DNA from: Ancylobacter sp. Lp-2
GTDB lineage: Bacteria; Pseudomonadota; Alphaproteobacteria; Rhizobiales; Xanthobacteraceae
Assembly (NCBI RefSeq): GCF_020523795.1
Contig: NZ_JAJALI010000007.1
Span: 124,001 to 188,000 of the forward strand
DNA length: 64,000 bases
Direction of reading: 5' to 3'
Shown here: piece after piece, positions 2,308 through 29,442 of the stretch
How positions within the stretch are numbered: position 1 is the stretch's first letter
How the letters are laid out: each line of letters begins with the position of its first letter
Program-made: the position numbers and the translations under genes
The notes under the pieces: generated by a model
Seen by the model: the letters and a program-made list of their open reading frames with translations, nothing else
The model's database searches: none
Told to the model about the DNA's origin: nothing

Positions 2308-3296
2308 TACTGGTCTGCGGAGAGGCGCTCATCGACCTGTTCGTCGGCCCGCCGGAGGGCACCGAGATGCCGGCCCGCGCGGTCGCCGGCGGCTCGCCCT
2401 TCAACGTCGCCATCGGCCTCGCGCGGCAGGGCGCGCGCGCCGCCTTTCTCGGCGGCATCTCGCGCGACCGCTTCGGCGGGCTGCTCGCGGACATTCTCGA
2501 GTGCGAGGGGGTCGATACACGTTTCATCGTGCGCACCGACCGGCTGTCCACCCTCTCGGCCATCGCCACCGCCCCGGACGGACAGCCGAGCTATTCCTTC
2601 CATGGCGAGGCAGCGGCCGACCGCTCGCTGACGCCGGAAGATCTGCCGTCGCAGCTGCCGGACGAGGTGCGCGCGCTCACCTTCGGTTCCTACACCATAG
2701 TGGTGGAGCCGGTGGGTTCGACCTATGCCCTGCTCGCCGAACGCGAGAAGGGGCGCCGGGTGATCAGCGTCGACCCCAATGTGCGCCCGACCGTGGTGCG
2801 CGACATGAAGCGCTGGGGCGCCGCCGCCGAGCGCTTCTACCGCTGCGCCACCCTCGTCAAGGCGAGCGACGAGGATGTCCGCACCGCGCTGGGCGAAGAC
2901 ACCTCGCTTGCCGATGCTGCCGCCTACTGGCTCGGCCTCGGCGCCCGGCTGGTGGTGATCACCCGCGGTGCCGCTGGGGCGGTCGCCTTCGGCGCCGCCG
3001 GCACGGTGAGCGTGCCGGGTCGTGAGGTGAGCGTGCGCGACACGGTCGGCGCCGGCGACACGTTCCACGCCGCGCTGCTCGCCCGCCTCGCAGCCACCGG
3101 CCGGCTCGACGAAACCGCCATCGCTGCGCTGGATGCCGAGGCGATCGGCGACCTCCTCGCCTATGCGACAGCCGCGGCGGCGGTGACCATCACCCGCCGT
3201 GGCGCCGACCTGCCTCGCCGCGCGGATATCGAGGCGGTGCTGAGCGCGCCGGCCGCCTTGCCCGGCACGGTCGCTGCGGCCTTGTGCGGCATCTGA
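2304..3296 (+). CDS. PfkB-family carbohydrate kinase (fructokinase-like)
   Basis: The ATG at 2304 gives 330 residues, overlaps the mutarotase stop by 4 bp and starts MILVCGEALIDLF, the classic PfkB N-terminus; the frame is open upstream to about 2085 but that part has no family similarity. GGSPFNVAIGLARQG (PfkB signature 1 region) and DTVGAGDTFHAALL (signature 2, with the catalytic Asp and anion hole) are intact. It should phosphorylate the sugar brought in by the FrcB-type importer. The N-terminus resembles rhizobial FrcK, hence the fructokinase suggestion; ribokinase-type activity cannot be excluded. Confidence 0.85.
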   Translation: MILVCGEALIDLFVGPPEGTEMPARAVAGGSPFNVAIGLARQGARAAFLGGISRDRFGGLLADILECEGVDTRFIVRTDRLSTLSAIATAPDGQPSYSFHGEAAADRSLTPEDLPSQLPDEVRALTFGSYTIVVEPVGSTYALLAEREKGRRVISVDPNVRPTVVRDMKRWGAAAERFYRCATLVKASDEDVRTALGEDTSLADAAAYWLGLGARLVVITRGAAGAVAFGAAGTVSVPGREVSVRDTVGAGDTFHAALLARLAATGRLDETAIAALDAEAIGDLLAYATAAAAVTITRRGADLPRRADIEAVLSAPAALPGTVAAALCGI

Positions 3297-7975: not shown

Positions 7976-10900
7976 TCATTGAATAAAAATCCGTAAGTCG
8001 TGACTTCTACCGTCGAGCGGTATGCGACCGATGCCGACGAAGTTCGGGCACTGCTCGTCGTCCAACACCGCATACGGCTCTTTGCTATCGTTGCCGAGGT
8101 GCAGAACTTCGATAGTGCAGGATGTTCCTCCCAGCGTCACCGTCGCTGCGTACCCCGGCCATGTCGAAGGCATGCGCGGATCGACAATAAGGAAGCTGCC
8201 CTCTCGCTTAATGCCGAGGATGCCTTCTACCCCAGCGCGGTGCATCCAGCCGGCGGAACCGGTGTACCAGGTCCAGCCGCCGCGGCCGATATGTGGAGCG
8301 ACAGAGTAGATGTCGGCGGCGACGACGTAGGGCTCGACCTTATAGCGTTCGGTCTCCTCCGGCGTGCGGGCATGGTTGATCGGGTTGAGCAGTGCGAAGA
8401 GCTCATGCGCTTTGTCACCCGCGCCCAGTTTTGCGAAGGCGAGGACCGCCCACATGGCGGCGTGGCTGTATTGCCCGCCATTCTCGCGCAGGCCCGGCGG
8501 GTAGCCCTTGATGTAGCCGGGGTCGAGCGGCGTTCTGTCGAAGGGCGGGGTGAACAGCAGGGCCAGCCCCTCGTCGCGGCGGATCAGATGATGCTCGAGC
8601 GAGGTCATCGCGGTGCCGGCGCGCAGGGCATCAGCGGCGCCGGACAGCACGGCCCAGGACTGTGCGATCGAGTCGATGCGGCATTCCCCACTGTCCTTGG
8701 AACCGAGCCATGTGCCGTCGTCAAAAGTTGCCCGGCGATACCACTCGCCATCCCATGCCGAGCGCTCCAGCGCCCGGCGCACCGAGGCGGCATGCGCACG
8801 CCAGCGCCGGGCGCGTTCGGGATCGCGCGCTTCCGCCAGTGGTGTAAAGATGTCGATGGTGCGGATCAGCAGCCAGCCGAGCCAGACGCTCTCGCCTTTT
8901 CCGCCCTCGCCGACGCGGTTCATGCCGTCGTTCCAGTCGCCGATGCCGATCAGCGGTAGACCACGCGCGCCGGTGAGCGAAAGCGCGTGCTCGAGGCCAC
9001 GGGCGCAGTGCTCGAACAATGAGGCTGTCTCGTCCGCCGGCATCGGCTGGAAGAAATGCTCGTGCTCCTCCGGCCGCAATTGCGGCCCGTCGAGATACGG
9101 CACCCTCTCGTCGAGGATCGCGGCATCGCCCGAGTTTTCGATATAGGTCGCCACGGCAAAGGCGAGCCATACATGATCATCGGAGATGCGGGTGCGCACG
9201 CCCTGGCCCGATTGCGGCAGCCACCAATGCTGGACGTCGCCCTCGACGAATTGCCGCCCGGCGGCGCGCAGGAGATGGCTGCGCGTTTCCGCCGGCAGCG
9301 CCAGCGTCAGCGCCATACCGTCCTGCAACTGGTCGCGGAAGCCGTAGGCGCCGCTTGCCTGGTAGAAGGCGGAGCGCGCGGTGATGCGGCAGGCCAGCGT
9401 CTGGTAGAGCAGCCAGCCATTCAGCATGATGTCCATCGCCCGGTCCGGCGTCTTCACCTGGACGGTGCCGAGCACCGCGGTCCAGTGATCGCGCACCGCG
9501 GCGAAGACGGCATCGAGGTCGGTCTGGCGATAACGCTCGATCAGCGCCCGCACCTCCTCCACCGACCCGCATTGGCCGATGAACGACACGACCTCGACGG
9601 TCTCGCCGATGCCGAGTTCCACCACCGTCTGCAAGGCTCCACACGGATCGAGGCCGGCGCCGGTCGCGCCGGACAGAGGTGCCGTGCCTGCAAGGCCGAG
9701 CGGTGATGCGGGTCCGCCATCGCGGCCGAGGAATTCGGTGCGGTCCGCGGTCCAGGCGGTCTGCCGTCCGGCGAGATCGGCGAAGGCGACGCGGGAGCCG
9801 AAGGCGGCGCTCCAGCGATTACGCGCCATCATCACGCCGTTCTGCGCATCGATCTCGGTGGTGACGAACGGGGCGGAGGCGCCGCGCGAGGTGCCGAGCA
9901 CCCACTCCGCATAGGCGGTGACCGAGAGCCGGCGCGGCCGGCCGGACAGGTTGGTGAGCTTGAGGCGGGAAATCTTGATTGGGTCGTCTAGTGGCACGAA
10001 GTGCAACAGGTCGAGCGCGACGCCGTTCGCCTCGTGCTCGAAGCGGCTATAGCCGAAGCCGTGCCGCGCGACATAGATGCCATCGTCGCGGATCGGCCGT
10101 GCCGTCGGGCTCCACAGATCGCCGGTCGCCTCGTCCCGCACATAGATCGCCTCGCCGACCGGATCGGCGACGGCGTCGTTGGACCATTGGGTGATCTGGT
10201 TCTCGCGGCTGTTGGCCGACCATGTGTAGCCGCCGCCCTCGGCCGAAATCTGGAAGCCGAAGCCGGCATTGGCGACCACGTTGATCCAGGGTGCGGGCGT
10301 CGTTCGGTTTGGCCCGAGGACGGTCACATACTCCCGCCCCTCCTTGTCGAACCCGCCGAGACCGTTGAAGAATTCAAGGGCGGGCGGCGCGGGCGACGGC
10401 ACGGGACCGTGCATTGAGGTCAAGTTGTGGTCGCGGCGTCGGACGGCCGGAGGATTCGGCGCCCGGTGCACGCGTGCGAGCTGGTCGACGATGGCGCCGC
10501 GCCGCGCCGGCAACACCACGCGGGCAACCGACTGCACCAGCGCCCGCGATTCCACGCTCATGAGGTCGGCACGCAGCACATAGACCGCCCCCTGCGCCGG
10601 TTCTTCCCCGAGCAGCGGGCGCGATGCGTTGGTCCGCACCGCCGTCTCGATGGCGATCTGCAGATCCTGCACATAGGAGGAGGAGCGCTCATTGACGATG
10701 ACGAGATCGACGGCAAGGCGCTTCATCCGCCAATATTCATGGGCGCGCAGCAATTGGCGCACCTGGGCGATGTCCTCGATATCGTCGATCCGCAGCAGCA
10801 CGATCGGCAGGTCGCCGGAGATGGAATGCTGCCAGAGCCCTGATTGCGGCCCGGCGCCGCGAAGGATCGTCTCGGATGGCGACCTGAAACGCCCATCGGC

Positions 10901-13900
10901 ATAGAGCAGGGGAGCGGCGAGCCGCTGGAAGTCGGCCGCTTCCTCGACATTGACGTCGAGGTGCCGCAGTTGAACCTGCGCCTGTGTCCACGCCAAGGTC
11001 TTGGCGCGGTCGAACGCACTGCGATCATGATGCGTGTCGATGAGGTCGAGGAGTTCCGCCCGCGACGAGGCCACCACGGTCCAGAAGGCGACGCGTGCGA
11101 CCTTGCCCGGCGCGATGCGCACGCTCTGGCGCAGCGAGAAGATCGGGTCCAGCACCGTCCCCACGGTGTTCGACAGCGACAGGCGGCGCGACATGGCGTC
11201 CGCCGACCCCACGTCGTGTCCGCGGCCGATGAAGCGGGCACGGTCAGTCTCGTATTGCGGGGCAGCCGCAACGTCGCCTTCCACCACCGCGAAATGTGCT
11301 GCCCATATTTGCGGCTCGCCCGGCGTCCGCAGCCGGCGCGTGGCGAGGAGGGCGCCGAATTCCGGCAGATGCTCGGTCTCGACGAACATCTTGGCAAAGG
11401 CCGGATGGGCATTATCGGTGGCTGGCGTGGTCAGGACGAGCTCGGCATAGGATGTCAGCTCGATCTTCCGGGTCTGCCGCCCGCTATTGGTCAGCGACAC
11501 GCGCCGGACCTCGCCATTGTGCTCGCCAGAAACGATGACATCCATCGTCGTGGTCAGGCCGACATCGTGGCGGATGAACTCGGCGTGGTCCTCGCCGAAC
11601 ACCACGTCGCTTTCGCTGGCGCGGTCCGCCAGCGGCTGGGTGGTGGCGGACCAGACGCTGCCGCTCCTCATGTCGCGAAGGAAGATGAACGAACCCCAAT
11701 CGTCGCGGGTGGCGTCCTCGCGCCAGCGCGTCACCGCGATATCGCGCCAGCGGCTGTAGCCGCCGCCGGATGCCGTCATCATGACGGCGTAGCCGCCATT
11801 GGAGAGCAGATGCGTGACCGGCGCGCCGGCCGTGGGGGCGATCAGGCGGCGCACCGTTGCTGCTTCGCTGCGGGCGTCGACGGCAGCGGCCCGGACCTCT
11901 TCGGCGCGCGGGCGGGCCACGACGACGTCGCGGGGCGAGCGCTCCTGCAGCAGCAGCTCGCTTGCCCGGATCATCGGCTCGCGATGGAATCGGGCGCGTA
12001 TCTCGCCGCCCAGCAGCGTGTTGGCGATGGCGATGATGGTCATGCCCTGGTGATGGGCCATGAAGCTGCGGACGATGGCGACGTTTTCGCCTTCCGGAAG
12101 CCGCGAACGGGTGAAGTCGAGCGCCTCATAGAAGCCGTAGCGGCCCTGCGCGCCCAATTCGGCGAGGCGGGCATAATTCTGCCGCGCGCGCTCGGGATCC
12201 GCCATGGTGGCGAGGCCGGTCGCATAGGGCGCAACCACCACGCTCTCCGAGAGCCCGCGCTTGAGGCCGAGGCCCGGTACGCCGAAGTTGGCGTACTGGT
12301 AGGTGAATTCGATGTCGCGCGCATTATAGGCGGACTCCGACATGCCCCACGGAACGCCCAGCGACCGGGCATAGGATTGCTGCCGCTCGACCACCAGGCG
12401 GTTGGTCTGTTCGAGCACGCTGCCGGCCGGTGCACGCATCACCAGCGAGGGCATGAGATATTCGAACATTGATCCCGACCAGGAGATCAATGCCGAGCCG
12501 TTGCCGAGCGGCGTCGCGAGCCGACCGAGCCGGAACCAGTGGCGGGTCGGTACGTCGCCCTTGGCGATGGCGAACAAACTGGCGAGCCGCGCTTCGGACG
12601 CCAGCAAGTCGTAGCAGCTCGGGTCGAGGCCGTTGTCTGCCAGCGAATAGCCGATGGAAAGCAGCTTCCGCTCGGGATCGAGCAGAAATGCAAAGTCCAT
12701 CTCCATCGCCATGGTCCGGGCCGTGTCCGCAAGCGCGGTCAGCCGCACCTTCGTGGCGGCCGGTGCCGCCGGGAGCTGGAGGCGGTCACGCTGGTATTCA
12801 CTCACCGCCTTGCCGATCGTCTCGATCCAGTAGGCGATGTCCGTGGTGCCGCCCCCACCCGTCGCCGGGACGATATCCTGCGCAACCCTGTGGGCCCTGT
12901 CAGCGAGCCGCTTCAGAATGGGCGCCGTCGCTTCCAGTGTCTGCACGCCGTTCAACTGCGCGTCGATCTCGTCCAGTCCCGCCGCCAGCGCCTGTCCTTG
13001 TGCATTGCCAACCATCGGCAGGGCCGTCATCGCCTGGCGCGCCAACGCCAGAGCGTCGACGATGCCCGCGCGGGCGTTCACCCCGACGGGTGCATCCCTC
13101 CATTCCTCGCAGGCATTGGCGAGTGCGATCAGATGGCCAGCGAGATTGCCGCTGTCGACGGACGAGACATAGGCCGGCGGTAACGCGGCGAGGTCTTGCG
13201 TCCCGTACCAGTTGAAGAAGTGTCCGCGGAAACGGGGCAGCTGCTTCAAGCTGGCGAACGTCGCTTCGAGTCGCTCGATGATCTCGATCGTGCCGGTCCA
13301 GCCAAAGTCGCGGGCCGCGACCGCCGAGAGCAAGTAGAGACCGATATTGGTCGGCGAGGTCCGATGGGCGACGATCGGTTTCGGCTCTTCCTGGAAATTG
13401 TCCGGCGGCAGCATGTTCTCGGCCGGCGTGACGAAGGTCTCGAAATAGCGCCATGTGCGCCGGGCGATCAGGCGTAGGTCGCGGGCGTCGGCATCTGCAA
13501 GGTCGAGGTGTTGCTGCACCCTGGGTGAACGGCTCGCCCATTGCGCCATGAGGGGTGCGCCGAGCCAGAGCAGGGCAAATGGCAGGATGAGCGGCCAGGA
13601 GGCGGGCGCCAGGACAAGCGCGCCTGCGGTCATCGCAAGGGCCAGCAAGGTGCCGCTGGCCATCTGTCGATAGAAGCCGAGGACATCCAGCCGGGGGACT
13701 GCGGAGGACTTCGCGGCGGTCGTCCATTCCAACAGATGGCGTCGCGTCACCAGCAGCCGCACCAGCGTGCGCATTGCGGCATCGCCCGCCCGCCACGCCT
13801 GATCGGCGAGAAAGACGAGCGACAGCAATGTCTGGGCGGCGGCGAGCTGCAATTCAGCCACCAGTCTGGCGAGGTGGCTGCGCAGCCTTACGTCGGGGTG

Positions 13901-16525
13901 ACGAGGAAATATCGAGGACGCGATCGGCAGGACGGCGGGAACCATGATCGTCATGATCATCAGCAAGGTGCCGACAAGCGCCGCCGGCATGGGAAACAGC
14001 CAGCACAGGCTAAGCCCCAGCAGGGTCAGCGGGGCCAGCGTGGAGCGGCGCAGATTGTCGAACATCTTCCAGCGGCCGACCGGCGTCAGCGCGCGCCGTC
14101 CCACTCCCACACTGGAAATCCACGGAAGCAGCTGCCAGTCACCGCGTATCCAGCGATGCTGCCGCTTGGCGACAACGTCGTAGCGCGAGGGGAACTCCTC
14201 CACGACCTCGACGTCCGAAGCGAGGCCGGCGCGGGCAAACACGCCTTCGAAGAGGTCGTGGCTGAGCAGCGTGTTCTCCGGGATACGGCCGGCGAGAGAC
14301 GCCTCGAAGGCATCGATGTCGTAAATTCCCTTGCCGGTGTAGGAGCCTTCGCCGAACAGGTCCTGATAGACGTCGGAGACCGCCGCGGCATAAGGGTCCA
14401 TGCCACCGCCGCCGGAGATGACCCGCTGATAGAACGAGCCCTCGCTGCCGATAGGAAGCGAGGGAGTAACGCGCGGCTGGAGTATGCCGTGGCCGCCGAC
14501 CACTCGTTGCCCGACGGCATCGAATTTCGGGCGGTTCAGCGGATGCGCCATCTTGCCGACCAGCCGGAGCGCGGCGTCGCGCGGCAGCCGCGTGTCGGCA
14601 TCGAGCGTGATGACGTAGCGCACATCCGGCGGGACATGCGGGACCCGGCCACCGACGGGCAGGAAGGAGGTGTCGTCCGCGCCGCGCAGCAGGCGGTTGA
14701 GTTCATGCAGCTTGCCGCGCTTGCGTTCCCATCCCATCCATTTGCCTTCGCCTTGGTCGAACCGGCGACGGCGGTGCAGCAGAAGAAAGCGGTCACCCGC
14801 AGGGCCTGGGCCATAGCGCAGATTTAGCTGCTCGATCCCCTGCTCTGCGAGCTCCAACAGCGCCGCATCGCCCGGCAAGATCTCGGAATCGGCGTCTATA
14901 CCGTCCGACAGTAGGACGAAGGTGAGATCGCCGCCGATCCCGGAGAGAAAGTGGACCTCGAGCCTGTCGATCTGCTCCTGCAGGTCTGCCTCGCTGGTAA
15001 GCAGCGTCGGCACAGCGACGAGGGTGCGGAGGGACCCTGGAACGCCATCCGCGAGCTCGAGGCCGGGCAGAATGGTGGCGCCGAACATCCATGCCACGCC
15101 CCGGTTCACCAGCGCGGTCGCCACCTCGCTTGTCGGGACGAAGCCGACGAGGGCGAAGACGGCCAGCCAGCTCCCGGAGAGACCGGCCGCGGAGAGAACC
15201 CAAAGTGCCACCCCGATCAGACTGAGCGTGACGGCGAGGATGGCGCCGACATATCCGCCAATGCCGAGGCGAATGCTGACGCGGCTCAAGCGCAGCCGAG
15301 GTGGCGGGCGGAAGTGGATGGCCTGTTCGAACGCGCGCCGCCCTTCGGCGATGAGATGGTAGCCGGGATCCTCTATGGGGTCGGCGTCCGCATGCTTCTG
15401 TGCCGGAGACGCCGCCAGTGCCGCGACCTCCAGCGCGCGCTTGGCGATGTCAAGCTCTGACAGCTCGGAGCCGCGGGCGAGTTGCTCAATCGCGCTGCGG
15501 TAGAGATTGCGGGTGGGGAAATCCATCGAAGCGAAGGCACTGCCGGCTCGCAGTCGGTCGTCGACCAGGCTGACGCTCTCGAACAGGTCGGCCCAATCGA
15601 TGTCGGAAATCAGCCGCATGCTGGTGATGACGTTTCGCACGCTAACATTGGAGGCGCCGAGCCGCTGTTGAGCATGCTGCACAACGCCGTCGACCGAAGC
15701 GCCCTGGGCTGCCAGCCGTGCCTCCAGCCATCCCAGTGCCGGCGTCGTTCGCGGGTCCTGGTCCCGGAGTCGCTTGACCAGTTGAGCGGCGAAGACCTCA
15801 TCCAGAGGCCCCGGCGAGCGGGTGAGGATGTCCGCTTCGAGCGCTGAACGCGCTTCGCCAGAGATGAAAAGCCGGTCGGCCAGCAGGTCGGCCTCCCGGC
15901 GTGATCGGCGCCCGGTGGTGATCTGATCGGCGAGCCGGCGCAGGTTCTCGATGAGCACGATGCGCAGCGTGATCGCCACCGCCCACAGCTCGCCGATCGT
16001 CAGCGGCTGGACCTGCTGGTACGCCCCGATGAAGCGGCGCAGCACCTCGGGATCGAAATGGCTGTCCGTGTGCGCGACATAGGCCCAGGCGAGGCCCAGC
16101 ACTCGCGGGTAACCGGCGAACGGCCCTTCGGCGAGCTTCGGCAATTGTCGGTAATAGCCGGGCGGCAGGTCGTCTCGAATCTCGCGTACCTGCTCTTCGA
16201 CGAGATGATAATTGTCGAGCAGCCATTCGGCGGCGGGCACTACGCTCCGCCCGGCTTCGGCATCGGCCGCCGTCGCACGATAGGCGACGAGCAGAGCGCC
16301 GGCGTTGCTTTTTAAGCGGGCATGCAGGGAGGGGACGGATGGCGGCTGCGATGTGGTCGGTTGAGTCGCTGCTAGGCTCCGGGCATGCTGCTCCAGCCGC
16401 TCGGTGCCGAAGAGTTCCTCGCGGATCGGCGCGGGATCATTCCAAGCGGAACCTTGCCATGCGCGTTTCCGCCACAACGAGATGTATGAACCGCAGCGAC
16501 GGCGAAGACTGGCGATTGGATTCAT
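7976..16525 (-). CDS. ndvB: Cyclic beta-1,2-glucan synthase (NdvB/ChvB type, GT84-GH94)
   Basis: 2849 residues, full length for NdvB/ChvB. In order: a soluble N-terminal part; two transmembrane helices near residues 425-480; a GT84 glycosyltransferase region (TLDADTRLP near 640 as the DxD-type motif and QHRWIRGDW near 790); several more helices (about 830-1010); a glycoamylase-like domain with the GGYGIY-type region replaced by SVDSGNLAGHL; two carbohydrate-binding-like repeats (GGGYSRWRDI and GGGYTWSANSR); and a C-terminal GH94 phosphorylase domain with GIGDWNDGMNRVG near 2530 that contains the catalytic Asp. Known members build and cyclise periplasmic beta-1,2-glucan from UDP-glucose and set its ring size, giving osmotic protection and host interaction. 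No ndvA exporter is nearby. It may be a second copy. Confidence 0.9.
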   Translation of the reverse strand: MNPIASLRRRCGSYISLWRKRAWQGSAWNDPAPIREELFGTERLEQHARSLAATQPTTSQPPSVPSLHARLKSNAGALLVAYRATAADAEAGRSVVPAAEWLLDNYHLVEEQVREIRDDLPPGYYRQLPKLAEGPFAGYPRVLGLAWAYVAHTDSHFDPEVLRRFIGAYQQVQPLTIGELWAVAITLRIVLIENLRRLADQITTGRRSRREADLLADRLFISGEARSALEADILTRSPGPLDEVFAAQLVKRLRDQDPRTTPALGWLEARLAAQGASVDGVVQHAQQRLGASNVSVRNVITSMRLISDIDWADLFESVSLVDDRLRAGSAFASMDFPTRNLYRSAIEQLARGSELSELDIAKRALEVAALAASPAQKHADADPIEDPGYHLIAEGRRAFEQAIHFRPPPRLRLSRVSIRLGIGGYVGAILAVTLSLIGVALWVLSAAGLSGSWLAVFALVGFVPTSEVATALVNRGVAWMFGATILPGLELADGVPGSLRTLVAVPTLLTSEADLQEQIDRLEVHFLSGIGGDLTFVLLSDGIDADSEILPGDAALLELAEQGIEQLNLRYGPGPAGDRFLLLHRRRRFDQGEGKWMGWERKRGKLHELNRLLRGADDTSFLPVGGRVPHVPPDVRYVITLDADTRLPRDAALRLVGKMAHPLNRPKFDAVGQRVVGGHGILQPRVTPSLPIGSEGSFYQRVISGGGGMDPYAAAVSDVYQDLFGEGSYTGKGIYDIDAFEASLAGRIPENTLLSHDLFEGVFARAGLASDVEVVEEFPSRYDVVAKRQHRWIRGDWQLLPWISSVGVGRRALTPVGRWKMFDNLRRSTLAPLTLLGLSLCWLFPMPAALVGTLLMIMTIMVPAVLPIASSIFPRHPDVRLRSHLARLVAELQLAAAQTLLSLVFLADQAWRAGDAAMRTLVRLLVTRRHLLEWTTAAKSSAVPRLDVLGFYRQMASGTLLALAMTAGALVLAPASWPLILPFALLWLGAPLMAQWASRSPRVQQHLDLADADARDLRLIARRTWRYFETFVTPAENMLPPDNFQEEPKPIVAHRTSPTNIGLYLLSAVAARDFGWTGTIEIIERLEATFASLKQLPRFRGHFFNWYGTQDLAALPPAYVSSVDSGNLAGHLIALANACEEWRDAPVGVNARAGIVDALALARQAMTALPMVGNAQGQALAAGLDEIDAQLNGVQTLEATAPILKRLADRAHRVAQDIVPATGGGGTTDIAYWIETIGKAVSEYQRDRLQLPAAPAATKVRLTALADTARTMAMEMDFAFLLDPERKLLSIGYSLADNGLDPSCYDLLASEARLASLFAIAKGDVPTRHWFRLGRLATPLGNGSALISWSGSMFEYLMPSLVMRAPAGSVLEQTNRLVVERQQSYARSLGVPWGMSESAYNARDIEFTYQYANFGVPGLGLKRGLSESVVVAPYATGLATMADPERARQNYARLAELGAQGRYGFYEALDFTRSRLPEGENVAIVRSFMAHHQGMTIIAIANTLLGGEIRARFHREPMIRASELLLQERSPRDVVVARPRAEEVRAAAVDARSEAATVRRLIAPTAGAPVTHLLSNGGYAVMMTASGGGYSRWRDIAVTRWREDATRDDWGSFIFLRDMRSGSVWSATTQPLADRASESDVVFGEDHAEFIRHDVGLTTTMDVIVSGEHNGEVRRVSLTNSGRQTRKIELTSYAELVLTTPATDNAHPAFAKMFVETEHLPEFGALLATRRLRTPGEPQIWAAHFAVVEGDVAAAPQYETDRARFIGRGHDVGSADAMSRRLSLSNTVGTVLDPIFSLRQSVRIAPGKVARVAFWTVVASSRAELLDLIDTHHDRSAFDRAKTLAWTQAQVQLRHLDVNVEEAADFQRLAAPLLYADGRFRSPSETILRGAGPQSGLWQHSISGDLPIVLLRIDDIEDIAQVRQLLRAHEYWRMKRLAVDLVIVNERSSSYVQDLQIAIETAVRTNASRPLLGEEPAQGAVYVLRADLMSVESRALVQSVARVVLPARRGAIVDQLARVHRAPNPPAVRRRDHNLTSMHGPVPSPAPPALEFFNGLGGFDKEGREYVTVLGPNRTTPAPWINVVANAGFGFQISAEGGGYTWSANSRENQITQWSNDAVADPVGEAIYVRDEATGDLWSPTARPIRDDGIYVARHGFGYSRFEHEANGVALDLLHFVPLDDPIKISRLKLTNLSGRPRRLSVTAYAEWVLGTSRGASAPFVTTEIDAQNGVMMARNRWSAAFGSRVAFADLAGRQTAWTADRTEFLGRDGGPASPLGLAGTAPLSGATGAGLDPCGALQTVVELGIGETVEVVSFIGQCGSVEEVRALIERYRQTDLDAVFAAVRDHWTAVLGTVQVKTPDRAMDIMLNGWLLYQTLACRITARSAFYQASGAYGFRDQLQDGMALTLALPAETRSHLLRAAGRQFVEGDVQHWWLPQSGQGVRTRISDDHVWLAFAVATYIENSGDAAILDERVPYLDGPQLRPEEHEHFFQPMPADETASLFEHCARGLEHALSLTGARGLPLIGIGDWNDGMNRVGEGGKGESVWLGWLLIRTIDIFTPLAEARDPERARRWRAHAASVRRALERSAWDGEWYRRATFDDGTWLGSKDSGECRIDSIAQSWAVLSGAADALRAGTAMTSLEHHLIRRDEGLALLFTPPFDRTPLDPGYIKGYPPGLRENGGQYSHAAMWAVLAFAKLGAGDKAHELFALLNPINHARTPEETERYKVEPYVVAADIYSVAPHIGRGGWTWYTGSAGWMHRAGVEGILGIKREGSFLIVDPRMPSTWPGYAATVTLGGTSCTIEVLHLGNDSKEPYAVLDDEQCPNFVGIGRIPLDGRSHDLRIFIQ

Positions 16526-25507: not shown

Positions 25508-25729
25508 TCAAAAGTCAGTCTTCATCGGAGCCTGATAGTCCGGCTGAACGATCTCACCTCGTGGATTGAGCGAAGCGACCATTCGGTCCCCGTCCCAGAT
25601 TTCAACCCGTCGACCGGCCCGCATCGCGCGGACTTGGGCAAGCACAGCCGTATCGTCGCTGCATTCCATGTCGCTCGCCATCTCCAATCCGCCTTGGTGG
25701 CCGAACATAAAGATCTTGTAGAAGGTCAT
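25508..25729 (-). CDS. Small stress-linked protein, family B member 1
   Basis: ATG 25729 is preferred over 25735 because AGGAG lies eight bases before it; 73 residues. MTFYKIFMFGHQGGLEMASD, then MECSDDTAVLAQVRAMRAG and VEIWDGDRMVASLNP. The protein at 27161-27346 has the same plan (ECxDD-AVxxAR-L, VEIWxGxRLV), so they are paralogues. Such 60-75-residue proteins occur in rhizobial genomes without a known function. A perfect EcfG promoter lies 39 bases upstream (25768-25792), so it should be part of the general stress response. Confidence 0.75.
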   Translation of the reverse strand: MTFYKIFMFGHQGGLEMASDMECSDDTAVLAQVRAMRAGRRVEIWDGDRMVASLNPRGEIVQPDYQAPMKTDF

Positions 25730-25767
25730 GGACATCGCTCCTCACCTTCGACGTCGTATGCATTGTG

Positions 25768-25792
25768 AACGCGTGCGTTTGTCGGGTGTTCC
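25768..25792 (-). promoter_or_regulatory. EcfG-type general-stress promoter (perfect consensus)
   Basis: On the minus strand GGAAC (25792-25788), exactly 16 bases, then CGTT (25771-25768). This matches the known alphaproteobacterial EcfG/SigT consensus GGAAC-N16-CGTT and lies just upstream of the 25508-25729 gene. Confidence 0.8.
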
Positions 25793-25880
25793 GAGCCTGA
25801 CGCGCCCTGCGCGATACTGATCTGCGGTCGTGCGCGTCCGTCGCCGGCCGCTTTCGCCTGAAAGGCCTCTCCCGTTCGAT

Positions 25881-25905
25881 GGAACGAACAGCAGATGGGG
25901 ATGTT
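25881..25905 (+). promoter_or_regulatory. EcfG-type promoter (one mismatch), rightward
   Basis: GGAAC at 25881-25885, 16 bases, then TGTT at 25902-25905 (consensus CGTT). It is back-to-back with the leftward EcfG promoter at 25768-25792. Transcription would start near 25911. Confidence 0.6.
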
Positions 25906-25910
25906 GGGCT

Positions 25911-25982
25911 ATGACCGACTGCGCCTGGTCGGTCGCCTGCACAACGACCTAGCCCCCGCCCCGCCTCGGCGGGGGCGTTTTT
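25911..25982 (+). ncRNA. Candidate stress-induced small RNA, about 72 nt
   Basis: The segment begins about six bases after an EcfG-type -10 and ends at a strong intrinsic terminator, so a short discrete transcript is expected. The first part is single-strand-rich (GACCGACTGCGCCTGG); the 3' half is the terminator hairpin. An ATG at 25911 opens a 13-codon frame (MTDCAWSVACTTT, stop at 25950-25952), so a leaderless micropeptide is also possible. Known EcfG-controlled small RNAs such as Caulobacter GsrN give a precedent, but I see no sequence kinship to it. Confidence 0.4.
25952..25982 (+). terminator. Strong intrinsic terminator
   Basis: GCCCCCGCC (25952-25960) and GGCGGGGGC (25968-25976) form a perfect 9-bp GC stem with a 7-base loop, followed by GTTTTT (25977-25982). 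There is no ordinary gene immediately upstream on this strand, only the EcfG-type promoter at 25881. Confidence 0.85.
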
Positions 25983-25994
25983 CCGGTGCTTCCA

Positions 25995-26264
25995 ATGTCC
26001 ATGCTCATTACGCCCATTTCCGTCTCGGAGGACGCCGCAACCCGGCGAACCTTTGGTGACGTCGAGGGCGCCGCACGGTTTTTGATGGAAAATTGGCCAG
26101 AAGCGTTCTCCAGCACCCCGCTGCACGTCTCGGCTCGGCGAGTGGCATTGGACGCTCTAGCGAGCCATGTCCCGGTCGAAGCCTTCAGGCTGGCATTTGC
26201 AGCCGCGGCAGAGGAGGCCGGCATTCTGGCGGATCCGCCGTCAATTGGCCTGACAATCGGCTAA
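25995..26264 (+). CDS. DUF982 domain protein
   Basis: 89 residues from ATG 25995 (ATG 26001 also possible). FGDVEGAARFLMENWPEAFS, ARRVALDALASHVPVEAFRL and AFAAAAEEAGIL follow the DUF982 pattern: a short beta hairpin then two helices with FxxVxxAxxFLxxxWP near the start. The family is small, cytosolic, frequent in Hyphomicrobiales and of unknown function. It lies just after the terminator at 25952-25982, so it needs its own promoter or read-through. Confidence 0.8.
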   Translation: MSMLITPISVSEDAATRRTFGDVEGAARFLMENWPEAFSSTPLHVSARRVALDALASHVPVEAFRLAFAAAAEEAGILADPPSIGLTIG

Positions 26265-26291
26265 ACGCCAGATGTCTCACTCCTCACAAGG

Positions 26292-26567
26292 TCAGCGATC
26301 CGGCTTTGATTGATCCGCACCCATGAGTTGGAAGCTGCTGCCGGCAACACCGTTGTCCTGACGGCTGCACATGGCATCGTACTCACGCTGCCTCTCCGCC
26401 ATGTCAGCGATGTGCGCAAAGACTGGATCGGTGTCGCCGCCCATAATCTCGCGCGCGACGACCGGCCAGAGCCGATCAATCTTCCCTTGCCTTTCGGTCG
26501 GCCAGCACCCGGCGGCCAACAGATCCTGCGCGCAGATCGCACGCGCGCGCTCCTCCAGCTTTTCCAT
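26292..26567 (-). CDS. Hypothetical protein, family A member 1
   Basis: ATG 26567 gives 91 residues beginning MEKLEERARAICAQDLLAAG, then KIDRLWPVVAREIMGGD. The protein at 27359 starts MKSLEQTARRICGLDLLQKG and has YVDRFWPAVANEVRQG, so these are paralogues. A frame extends to 26648 but the added residues are not coding-like. After the shared helical region the C-terminal part (IADMAERQREYDAMCSRQDN) differs. No known domain recognised; cytosolic. Confidence 0.7.
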   Translation of the reverse strand: MEKLEERARAICAQDLLAAGCWPTERQGKIDRLWPVVAREIMGGDTDPVFAHIADMAERQREYDAMCSRQDNGVAGSSFQLMGADQSKPDR

Positions 26568-26749
26568 GACAGCCACGCTGCCGCCAGTGCTGACGGCGTA
26601 TGAGAGATGTGGCGGATGAAAGCGCGTCCTTGCGCGACGCCATTTCAACCGTTGGGGCCGATCACCCTAAGCATGGGCTCTCATTAGGAGCACCGTAACC
26701 ATAGCACGAACGGCCGAAAACGTCGCGTTCAATAGATTGGCATAGCGGC

Positions 26750-26774
26750 GGAACCCTCTCTGCGACCAATGGTT
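26750..26774 (+). promoter_or_regulatory. EcfG-type promoter (one mismatch)
   Basis: GGAAC at 26750-26754, 16 bases, GGTT at 26771-26774 (consensus CGTT). It lies 35 bases before the ATG at 26809. Confidence 0.55.
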
Positions 26775-26808
26775 GTCGCTAAGTAAGCAGAGTGGGACCT
26801 TCCCCAGA

Positions 26809-27105
26809 ATGGAAGTGATTAGATCCTTCAGCGGTGAAGGGTGGCTGCGCGTCTCCGGGTTCGCAGCGACGACCGCTCGCTATGACATCAATGTGATGCG
26901 TCGAAAGACATCGATCCCCGTTGGGGGGCTCTATGCAACCGGCTTCATCGCGACTGAGATGCCATCCATGATGGGAGTGCCCCTGACTTCGGTGCTTGTC
27001 ACGCTTGAGGACGGGAATGCTCACCGAGGCAAGATCACCGCAATATCGGCGCAAGGGGTGGAGGTGTTGTTTGACGCTCCTCTTGCCTTGCTCTCCACAG
27101 CGTAG
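26809..27105 (+). CDS. Hypothetical protein, 98 residues, probable beta-barrel
   Basis: ATG 26809 (MEVIRSFSGEGWLRVSG) is preferred; the frame is open to 26773 but that part overlaps the promoter. Blocks of beta strand follow (ARYDINVMRRKTSIPVGG, VPLTSVLVTLEDGNAHRGKI, ISAQGVEVLFDAPL). The MExIRSFSGEG opening and YDINVxR segment recur in unnamed Hyphomicrobiales proteins in my memory. An EcfG-type promoter lies immediately upstream. No signal peptide. Confidence 0.65.
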   Translation: MEVIRSFSGEGWLRVSGFAATTARYDINVMRRKTSIPVGGLYATGFIATEMPSMMGVPLTSVLVTLEDGNAHRGKITAISAQGVEVLFDAPLALLSTA

Positions 27106-27160
27106 ATAAGGGCATCTGCTCCAGGTGTCCGGCGCTTGCAGGCGGTGATGACTATGTGGC

Positions 27161-27346
27161 CTAGGGAAGATCTAGGGGAAAATCCAGCGCGGTCACCAGG
27201 CGGTTGCCTTGCCAGATTTCCATTCTTAGGCGCTTCTGCAGAAACCGGGCACGCTGAACAGCAGCTAGGTCATCAGCACAATCGACCTCAAGGGTCGACG
27301 AGATCATGCCTTCCATTGAAAATTCCAAAATCCGATAACGCTGCAT
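27161..27346 (-). CDS. Small protein, family B member 2
   Basis: 61 residues: MQRYRILEFSMEGMISSTLE, VDCADDLAAVQRARFLQKRL, RMEIWQGNRLVTALDF. It parallels the 25508-25729 protein over its whole length (two beta strands, a CxDD turn, a helix, then VEIW-G-RLV). It lies 12 bases after the family A gene at 27359 on the same strand, so one of each family sits in a two-gene transcript. The first locus has the same two families within about 600 bp but transcribed separately. Confidence 0.7.
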   Translation of the reverse strand: MQRYRILEFSMEGMISSTLEVDCADDLAAVQRARFLQKRLRMEIWQGNRLVTALDFPLDLP

Positions 27347-27358
27347 GGGTCTGGTCGC

Positions 27359-27574
27359 TCAGTCTGGTGCCAGGGTCCGGTATTCCGCTGAAAGTTTCTC
27401 GATCTCCTCTGCGGTAAATGGCCACTCACCAATGAGCACGATTCCTTGCCGAACTTCGTTGGCCACAGCGGGCCAGAAGCGGTCGACGTAAGTGGCGATC
27501 TGTTCGGGCAAAAACCCTTTTTGCAGGAGATCGAGGCCGCAGATGCGACGAGCGGTTTGCTCTAGCGATTTCAC
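27359..27574 (-). CDS. Hypothetical protein, family A member 2
   Basis: 71 residues: MKSLEQTARRICGLDLLQKG, FLPEQIATYVDRFWPAVANE, VRQGIVLIGEWPFTAEEIEK. Clear paralogue of the 26292-26567 protein over the first 45 residues (LE--AR-IC--DLL--G and DR-WP-VA-E). All helical, no signal peptide or membrane segment. It heads a two-gene unit with the family B gene at 27161. Confidence 0.7.
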   Translation of the reverse strand: MKSLEQTARRICGLDLLQKGFLPEQIATYVDRFWPAVANEVRQGIVLIGEWPFTAEEIEKLSAEYRTLAPD

Positions 27575-27664
27575 TGAAAAGCACCTTGGTCCGATCGAAT
27601 ATCCCCGAGCGCGGCCATTAGAATGAAGCCTGGAGGGGAGGCAACGCTGTTTCCGTAACGCCAG

Positions 27665-27901
27665 CTAGCCCCACGCATACGGTTTGCGTTCGCCCCGGAG
27701 GGAAGGGAAATTCGCGACAGCGAAGTCTCTCAATTGCGCAGGTTCCTGCAATCCGAATTCAAGCCCTTCCGACACTCGAGCTCGCACCATCATCCTCAAA
27801 TTAGAGTTGACCGACAGCAAGGTAAGTGGCGGCGTCCGTTGCACTATGTCCGCCCAAACTCGTTCGAACATGACGTCGAGCCCTTCGGGTTTGGATTGCA
27901 T
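27665..27901 (-). CDS. Hypothetical protein, 78 residues
   Basis: ATG 27901 lies six bases behind AGGAGG, an excellent ribosome site. MFERVWADIVQRTPPLTLLS, VNSNLRMMVRARVSEGLEFG and LRDFAVANFPSLRG indicate a compact helical protein. No recognised family. Codon use is less GC-biased than the neighbouring large genes, as for the other small genes of this stretch. Confidence 0.65.
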   Translation of the reverse strand: MQSKPEGLDVMFERVWADIVQRTPPLTLLSVNSNLRMMVRARVSEGLEFGLQEPAQLRDFAVANFPSLRGERKPYAWG

Positions 27902-28017
27902 CGATCGCCTCCTGAGGATCCGGAGGGAACACCATAGTGCGGCGCGTCGAGCGGGCCTCTAACATTTGTTAGTCGTGCCAAACCTTTGCCTGTTCATCGG
28001 TAGCTTATACCCGTGCT

Positions 28018-28042
28018 GGAACGCGACGTTCGTTCCGGCGTT
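28018..28042 (+). promoter_or_regulatory. EcfG-type general-stress promoter (perfect consensus)
   Basis: GGAAC at 28018-28022, exactly 16 bases, CGTT at 28039-28042. It lies 35 bases before the GTG start of the DUF6894-like gene. Confidence 0.8.
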
Positions 28043-28077
28043 GGCACCTAAGACGTGGCCGATCGCAGGGGATTACG

Positions 28078-28320
28078 GTGCCAATTTACTCCTTCAAATG
28101 GTCTGGCGAAGAACTGCCCACAGAGGTCGATCTCCCGGATGAACACGCCGCCTGGTCAGAGGCGGTCATGACGCTGGGTCAAATGCTTCGCGAGTTGGAC
28201 GGCTCCTTTCCAACTGAAGGAGAGCTGGAAATGGAGGTCCAGAGCGGAACAGGGGCAACCGTCGGCTGGATTTTAGTGAAAACGGGAAAGGGACGACCGC
28301 CGAGGGGCCACCAAAATTAA
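28078..28320 (+). CDS. DUF6894-like small protein
   Basis: 80 residues from GTG 28078, behind GCAGGGGATTAC. It begins MPIYSFKWSGEELPTEVDLP, then DEHAAWSEAVMTLGQMLREL and a beta strand MEVQSGTGATVGWILV. DUF6894 proteins share this plan: a short beta hairpin with a D-EG/LPD motif, a helix AxxEAxxxxxEML and a final strand. Function unknown. A perfect EcfG promoter lies upstream, and a Crp/Fnr regulator follows 56 bp downstream and may be cotranscribed. Confidence 0.7.
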   Translation: MPIYSFKWSGEELPTEVDLPDEHAAWSEAVMTLGQMLRELDGSFPTEGELEMEVQSGTGATVGWILVKTGKGRPPRGHQN

Positions 28321-28376
28321 TGCGATCTCTCTTGCGGAATGCCTGTCGCCTCCGCTGAAACAGAGTCGTCACAACC

Positions 28377-29117
28377 ATGAGGATTTCTGTGAACGGGTTT
28401 CACATTCACTCTCTGTTGCGCAAGCTTGATGCGGAGAGGCGGTTCGCCAAGGAGGAGATTGCGGCTCTTCGCGAACTGCCGATTCAGATCGCCAGCTTGC
28501 AGCCTGGGGAGCACATTGTGCGCGAGGGCGATCGTCCGACCAAGTCGTGCCTCATCATCGAGGGGCTCGTCTGCGCCTCGAAAACAACCGCTCGCGGCAG
28601 TCGGCAAATTGCCTCGCTGTATATTCCCGGTGACATTCCCGACCTTCAAAGTCTTCACCTTGAGGTGATGGACATTTCTTTCGAGGCGATTACGCCCGCC
28701 AGGATCGGCTTCATCTCTCATTCCGCGCTCCGGCGGGTCTGCGATGCATTTCCGCGGGTGGCTTCGGCACTTTGGCGCACGACCTTGGTAGATGCCGCGA
28801 TCTATCGTGATTGGGTCACCAACGTAGGGCAACGCGACTCCGATTCACGGCTTGCCCATCTTTTCTGCGAATTGAGGATGCGTCTGGACACCGTCGGCCT
28901 TGTCCAGGAAGAAAGCTATGATCTGCCGCTCACCCAGACGGACCTCGCGGATGCGCTCGGCATCTCGGTGGTGCACGTCAACCGCACTTTGCAGAAGCTG
29001 CGTCGCCTCGGCCTGATATCATTCAGAAACAAGCGGTTGACGGTGCTGGATTGGCCTCAACTTGCCGAAATGGGTGATTTCGAGCCCAGCTATCTACATC
29101 TGTCCGAACGAGTATAG
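28377..29117 (+). CDS. Crp/Fnr-family transcriptional regulator
   Basis: 246 residues. An N-terminal cyclic-nucleotide-binding-fold domain (LQPGEHIVREGDRPTKSCLI, then LYIPGDIPDLQSL) is followed by the dimer helix and a C-terminal HTH (LPLTQTDLADALGISVVHVN and RTLQKLRRLGLI). There is no N-terminal Cys cluster, so it does not sense oxygen through an Fe-S cluster as Fnr does, and the Arg/Ser cAMP-binding pair is not evident. This is a common rhizobial subgroup whose ligand is unknown. It sits within the stress block, downstream of an EcfG-driven gene. Confidence 0.88.
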   Translation: MRISVNGFHIHSLLRKLDAERRFAKEEIAALRELPIQIASLQPGEHIVREGDRPTKSCLIIEGLVCASKTTARGSRQIASLYIPGDIPDLQSLHLEVMDISFEAITPARIGFISHSALRRVCDAFPRVASALWRTTLVDAAIYRDWVTNVGQRDSDSRLAHLFCELRMRLDTVGLVQEESYDLPLTQTDLADALGISVVHVNRTLQKLRRLGLISFRNKRLTVLDWPQLAEMGDFEPSYLHLSERV

Positions 29118-29442
29118 CGGTTATCGTCGTCGTGACAGCGAGCGCGGATCACGCGGCAAGCCACGCGACGGCAATCCCTCTCACCACGATAATGGCAGCC
29201 AGCCACGCAACCACTCGCACGGCGAAGGGCATGGCAGATGCGCCACCACGATTGTCGTCGAAGCCGCGGGAGGCTTCGTAGGTGACGGCGAGCGGATTGG
29301 GGACGTCGCCGAAATTCCCTCTTTCCGCGCCCACTCGACAGTATCCCTCGTCGGGGGAAGCCTCGCCGCCTCGATAAGCTTTCACGGAACGAACTGCTCG
29401 GCCTTTGGTTCTGCCTCTGCTTGGGGAACACAGGAGAGCACA
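29118..29442. promoter_or_regulatory. Gap with an EcfG-type promoter at 29386-29410
   Basis: No convincing gene lies here, although the DUF892 frame stays open upstream. GGAAC at 29386-29390, 16 bases, then GGTT at 29407-29410 (one mismatch to CGTT), 33 bases before the DUF892 start. A 27-codon minus-strand frame (29149-29232) encoding a hydrophobic peptide is probably chance. Confidence 0.6.

What the first reader, a model, noticed from the sequence alone, without database searches (positions are those of the whole stretch)
25881..25982. Candidate EcfG-driven small RNA or leaderless micropeptide
A near-consensus EcfG promoter is followed, without any ordinary gene, by a perfect 9-bp GC terminator with a T run. 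The expected RNA is about 70 nt (25911-25982). A 13-codon frame starts at its first ATG, so a leaderless peptide is also possible. It is back-to-back with another EcfG promoter. I see no likeness to the known GsrN small RNA.
Basis: partly seen in the sequence, partly recalled or inferred. Interest (0 to 1): 0.72.

Follow-up and report, generated by a model that had tools for sequence, protein, structure and literature searches.

The report
Stress-promoter leader RNA before DUF982 gene
In an Ancylobacter-type bacterium, a general-stress promoter is followed by a short two-hairpin RNA that should end at a terminator just before a small gene of unknown function, so it is probably a stress-induced short RNA that may also limit expression of that gene.

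Summary
GGAAC-N17-GTT (25881-25905) is followed by a hairpin (25913-25934) and a 9-bp GC terminator with T5 (25952-25982), back-to-back with a second EcfG-like site. In 1.144 Mb of Ancylobacter DNA, 2 of 64 EcfG-like sites have a terminator 15-110 nt downstream (0.31 expected). The unit is in 2 of 30 genus genomes, three copies. Against its 91% paralogue, promoter and terminator are kept (1/25, 1/31 changes), but the body drifts (7/46 plus two insertions), breaking the 13-codon frame. A. defluvii has the same order (EcfG site, two hairpins, DUF982) with hardly alignable sequence. DUF982 is EcfG-associated: 14 of 69 order-wide loci have GGAAC-N17-GTT within 150 nt, none with a terminator between. 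My reading: an EcfG-driven, prematurely terminated leader of DUF982, giving a short stress RNA, and DUF982 mRNA by read-through. A stand-alone trans-acting sRNA is a close rival. The micropeptide is disfavoured. It lacks GsrN's C-rich loop and usual location. No transcript has been shown.

The parts
25881..25905 (+). EcfG-type promoter GGAAC-N17-GTT
   Evidence: 1 change in 25 against the paralogue, towards CGTT
25913..25934 (+). 5' hairpin of the predicted RNA (8 bp); its foot coincides with the +1 expected from spacing
   Evidence: weaker in the paralogue (z -0.95)
25935..25951 (+). unpaired linker of the predicted RNA
   Evidence: part of the fastest-changing stretch
25952..25982 (+). intrinsic terminator: 9-bp GC stem, 7-nt loop, G, TTTTT
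   Evidence: 1 change in 31, in the loop, against the paralogue
25911..25952 (+).
   Evidence: frame shifted and stop lost in the paralogue
25995..26264 (+). DUF982 gene, 12 nt after the T run
   Evidence: PF06169; conserved start in an alignment of ten; pN/pS 0.26 on 12 substitutions
25768..25792 (-). divergent EcfG-type promoter of the 75-aa ORF
   Evidence: invariant against the paralogue
25508..25735 (-). 75-aa ORF, divergent neighbour, no Pfam or PHROG family
   Evidence: 95% identical in the A. sonchi paralogous locus

Best explanation
The region is the leader of an EcfG-driven DUF982 gene. Under general stress EcfG-RNA polymerase starts near 25913-25915. Most transcripts stop at 25978-25982 and give a ~70-nt RNA closed at its 5' end by a hairpin and at its 3' end by the terminator. 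A minority reads through into DUF982. The terminator thus sets a low DUF982 dose from a near-consensus promoter and yields a stable short RNA as the other product. Seen in the sequence: promoter, hairpin, terminator, DUF982, their conservation pattern, and no other recognised promoter for DUF982. Inferred: EcfG dependence, both RNA ends, read-through, and any function of the short RNA.
For: EcfG site followed by a terminator is rare (2 of 64 sites, 0.31 expected). Promoter and terminator kept while the body drifts. DUF982 12 nt downstream under purifying constraint (pN/pS 0.26 on 12 substitutions). In A. defluvii the stretch GGAAC through ATG is also 117 nt, with two hairpins of other sequence and an apparently divergent upstream gene. 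Order-wide, 14 of 69 DUF982 loci have GGAAC-N17-GTT within 150 nt of the match, so an EcfG promoter belongs to this gene family. The ATG-proximal ECF-type site found at 13 of 24 Ancylobacter DUF982 loci is absent from the window-type and A. defluvii loci, and a sigma-70 scan finds none.
Against: No expression data. The U tract scores above the sample median (46 of 117 terminators score higher), so nothing marks the terminator as leaky. The two hairpins are compatible, so no antiterminator is evident. The syntenic A. sonchi locus L042 lacks the module. The A. defluvii second hairpin has a 10-nt loop and a broken U tract and was not listed by my terminator scan. Window and A. defluvii leaders are barely similar (8 of 500 shuffles; body alone 25 of 500). 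Only five loci, three distinct kinds, show the site, and in G028 the terminator may belong to the previous gene.
Confidence: 0.48

Rival explanations
1. A stand-alone trans-acting sRNA of the general stress response: EcfG promoter, 5' hairpin, linker as seed, terminator. The DUF982 gene beside it is transcribed otherwise or is silent.
For: Classical sRNA anatomy. A stand-alone EcfG-site RNA exists in the genus: L210:2330-2429 in A. sonchi, after the terminator of the preceding gene, with relatives in G008. GSR sigma-driven sRNAs are described in S. meliloti (PMC3616915, passages).
Against: The body that would hold the seed is the fastest-changing part (7 of 46 plus two insertions). The covariance model of the stand-alone family does not match the window unit. 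DUF982 would be left without a recognised promoter.
Confidence: 0.35
2. Chance pairing: the EcfG-like site or the terminator is a relic, and no regulated short RNA is made.
For: The unit is in 2 of 30 genus genomes only. Many DUF982 loci of the genus lack it.
Against: Promoter and terminator are the better-kept parts in the paralogue. Five N17 sites lie between 25.7 and 29.5 kb against 13 in the rest of the 344 kb, nine of those at contig 306-319 kb around nepR.
Confidence: 0.12
3. A leaderless 13-residue peptide is the product.
For: ATG 25911 lies at the expected start region.
Against: Frame and stop lost in the paralogue; no matching peptide in A. defluvii or G028; the ATG is nearer to GTT than in 13 of 13 loci with the leaderless pattern.
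Confidence: 0.03

Closest known systems
GsrN (Caulobacter general-stress sRNA, PMC5869019)
   Same: EcfG-type promoter, 5' hairpin, intrinsic terminator
   Different: The 5' loop here is GCGCCU, without the cytosine run of GsrN (against passages). It lies 162 kb from nepR; it is shorter (~70 against 106 nt); a gene follows at once.
RpoE2-driven sRNAs of Sinorhizobium meliloti (PMC3616915, passages)
   Same: Short transcripts behind general-stress sigma promoters
   Different: No sequence comparison made; here a DUF982 gene follows 12 nt after the terminator.
SorX (Rfam RF02784)
   Same: Stress sRNA of an alphaproteobacterium; the A. sonchi stand-alone unit scores 30.7 bits, below the gathering score of 46.6
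   Different: The window unit itself has no match.
Transcription attenuator leaders (recalled class)
   Same: Promoter, short leader, intrinsic terminator, then the gene
   Different: No antiterminator, and no conserved leader peptide, was found.

Membership tests
GsrN | EcfG-dependent promoter | tested here: inconclusive
   Motif present; dependence needs an experiment.
GsrN | Exposed cytosine-rich 5' loop | tested here: not met
   Loop GCGCCU; GsrN has six tandem cytosines (PMC5869019, passages).
GsrN | Location near ecfG/nepR/phyR | tested here: not met
   nepR is 162 kb away; C. crescentus gsrN is itself an exception.
GsrN | Sequence homology to GsrN | not tested
   No GsrN sequence was fetched.
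Any Rfam 15 family | Match to a covariance model | tested here: not met
   Nothing at the unit up to E 5 or at gathering score.
   No match at the unit up to E 10.
Transcription attenuator leader | Intrinsic terminator between promoter and gene | tested here: met
Transcription attenuator leader | Signal-dependent alternative structure or leader translation | tested here: not met
   Only two compatible hairpins predicted; leader frame not conserved. Prediction only.

The most novel reading that the evidence does not exclude
A general-stress sigma factor drives a class of terminator-gated leaders in front of mobile DUF982 genes. Two-hairpin architecture and leader length are selected while sequence drifts, so one locus yields a stable stress RNA and a strictly dosed small protein.
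Probability: 0.2. Interest if true: 0.65.

Novelty: new member of a known kind. Interest (0 to 1): 0.42.

Why it matters
If real, it adds a riboregulated output to the alphaproteobacterial general stress response. It also ties DUF982, a family of unknown function that one paper of the held library names, to EcfG, which gives a testable regulatory handle on it.

Tried and rejected
Upstream gene's terminator: rejected for the window, because the upstream neighbour is divergent.

Leaderless micropeptide: frame not kept in the paralogue.

Known RNA family: no match at the unit.

Membership in the A. sonchi/G008 sRNA family, which I first suspected by eye from similar linkers (note): rejected by covariance search. 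Model R1 had my structure shifted by one column and was not searched with; R2 replaced it. Of the weaker R2 hits, 28 loci were looked at: 0 of 28 has the EcfG-like pattern upstream, and to my eye most look like plain terminators.

MAFFT alignments of the leaders did not align the promoters or hairpins and were not used for covariation. So no formal covariation test supports the hairpins.

Plasmid DNA: no match. Promoter stretch in viral contigs: 0. PHROGs: 1 of 10 neighbouring ORFs matched, families of unknown function, so the window locus is not shown to be a prophage. The A. defluvii leader searched in 30 genus genomes found itself and two stretches of 20 and 30 nt. My notes miscount or abbreviate in places: the loose pattern hit 16 of 24 loci, not 17.

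Full report
OBSERVATION. The predicted RNA folds as an 8-bp 5' hairpin (25913-25934), a 17-nt linker and the terminator, better than shuffles (z -3.7 and -3.2).

SOURCE. A NepR match lies on the same contig 162 kb away, and a GGAAC-N17-GTT site begins 194 bp before it. So at least part of the general stress system is present.

CHANCE. In 344 kb of the window's contig there are 30 GGAAC-N16-18-GTT sites; one has a terminator 15-110 nt downstream, this one. In 1.144 Mb from three genomes it is 2 of 64 sites, 0.31 expected from 117 terminators. G000 and G004 are close relatives (99% over 3.1 kb), so the sample is partly redundant. Five of the 18 N17 sites of the 344 kb lie at window 25.7-29.5 kb; nine others lie at contig 306-319 kb around nepR.

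CONSERVATION. A DNA search finds the unit in 2 of 30 genus genomes: the window's own and A. sonchi (one identical copy, one 92% over 271 bases, 91% over 141). In 391 family genomes, 8 others gave only stretches of 21-52 nt. Against the diverged paralogue the promoter has 1 change in 25 and the terminator 1 in 31 (loop). The body 25906-25951 has 7 in 46 plus two 1-nt insertions, the spacer 7 in 88, and DUF982 12 in 270 with pN/pS 0.26. Promoter and terminator are kept while the body drifts. The counts are small. The first hairpin is weaker in the paralogue (fold z -0.95), which speaks against a strict need for it. The insertion at 25933 shifts the 13-codon frame and removes its stop.

ARCHITECTURE IN RELATIVES. 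I inspected 27 of the 30 Ancylobacter DUF982 matches held as loci after (three weak partial ones left out). Five have GGAAC-N14-20-GTT within 350 nt upstream: the three window-type copies, one A. defluvii locus (L143/L030) and one in G028 (L146/L026). The leaders that I folded (window, paralogue, A. defluvii, G028) each show two hairpins. In A. defluvii the stretch from GGAAC through the ATG is 117 nt, as in the window. Its hairpins are 13 and 11 bp of different sequence, and the upstream gene is apparently divergent. Similarity is marginal (8 of 500 shuffles reach the score; body alone 25 of 500), and for G028 weaker still (40 and 222 of 500). Common descent of the leaders is plausible, not proven. 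The A. defluvii second hairpin has a 10-nt loop and a broken U tract, so my terminator scan did not list it. In G028 a co-directional ORF ends 5 nt before GGAAC, and a GAAAC-N17-CGTT site lies nearer DUF982, so that terminator may simply end the previous gene. The syntenic divergent pair in A. sonchi L042 lacks the module.

DUF982 AND ECFG. Order-wide I examined 69 matches: 29 loci it gave besides the window, plus 40 taken down its ranking, one close neighbour skipped and lower rows left out. 17 N17 sites point at the gene within 400 nt, 14 of them in 14 loci within 150 nt of the match, against 2 N17 sites on the opposite strand and 7 in 41 kb further upstream (both strands). None of the 21 sites of any spacing is followed by a terminator before the gene; three loci have a terminator-like hairpin within 250 nt (L109, L131, and L135, where it overlaps an N18 site). 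In Ancylobacter, 13 of 24 DUF982 loci have an ECF-type site NNAAC-N16-18-[A/G]TT with an ATG 7-9 nt after it, against 1 of 1963 ORFs of at least 150 aa; only 1 of these 13 has GGAAC. This suggests leaderless mRNAs; the sigma factor is not known. The window-type and A. defluvii loci lack this site. By the same spacing +1 of the window RNA would be 25913-25915, at the foot of the 5' hairpin and just past the ATG of the 13-codon frame.

MECHANISM. I judge most likely that EcfG polymerase makes a ~70-nt terminated RNA, and DUF982 mRNA by read-through. Both are inferred. The U tract is not unusually poor (46 of 117 sampled terminators score higher), so leakiness is assumed from the gene's position, not seen. 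Two compatible hairpins and no conserved leader frame argue against a classical switch. The closest rival is a trans-acting sRNA. A stand-alone EcfG-site RNA does exist in the genus (L210:2330-2429 in A. sonchi; 5 further places in G008, one with a decayed promoter), but the covariance model built from those RNAs does not match the window unit.

COMPARISON. GsrN has a cytosine-rich 5' loop and usually lies near ecfG (PMC5869019, passages read); neither holds here. RpoE2-type motifs precede 23 sRNAs in S. meliloti (PMC3616915, passages). Library searches: DUF982 gives one paper (listing); Ancylobacter with small RNA gives three, apparently unrelated (listing); EcfG with leaderless and general stress response gives none; EcfG with small RNA gives nine, of which I read passages of one. 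I file it as a new member of a known kind (general-stress short transcripts or terminated leaders), not as a member of a known family.

Noticed in passing
Ancylobacter DUF982 loci, e.g. L150, L158, L164 (locus positions about 1450-1501): 13 of 24 DUF982 loci have an ECF-type site with an ATG 7-9 nt after it (NNAAC-N17/18-GTT-GARTC..-ATG in most), against 1 of 1963 control ORFs: probably leaderless DUF982 mRNAs from one ECF-type promoter.
   Followed up: partly
L210:2330-2429 (A. sonchi); L212, L214, L215 (G008): Stand-alone EcfG-site RNA with a C-rich 5' loop and a terminator, in tandem at two G008 places; weak SorX resemblance of the A. sonchi copy (30.7 bits, below cut-off). A better GsrN-like candidate than the window unit.
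   Followed up: partly
window 25768-29410: Five GGAAC-N17-GTT sites in 3.7 kb (25792 minus, 25881, 26750, 28018, 29386), the latter ones before small ORFs including a DUF6894 gene (28078) and an ORF at 29440 that I recall as YciF-like.
   Followed up: no
L249 and L250, about 2920-3005: In two viral-labelled contigs a DUF982 gene follows a terminator and then GCAAC-N17-CGTT with the ATG 8 nt later: looks like a prophage-carried extra gene with its own ECF-type promoter.
   Followed up: partly
window 7976-16525 (minus): A 2849-aa open reading frame, not examined.
   Followed up: no
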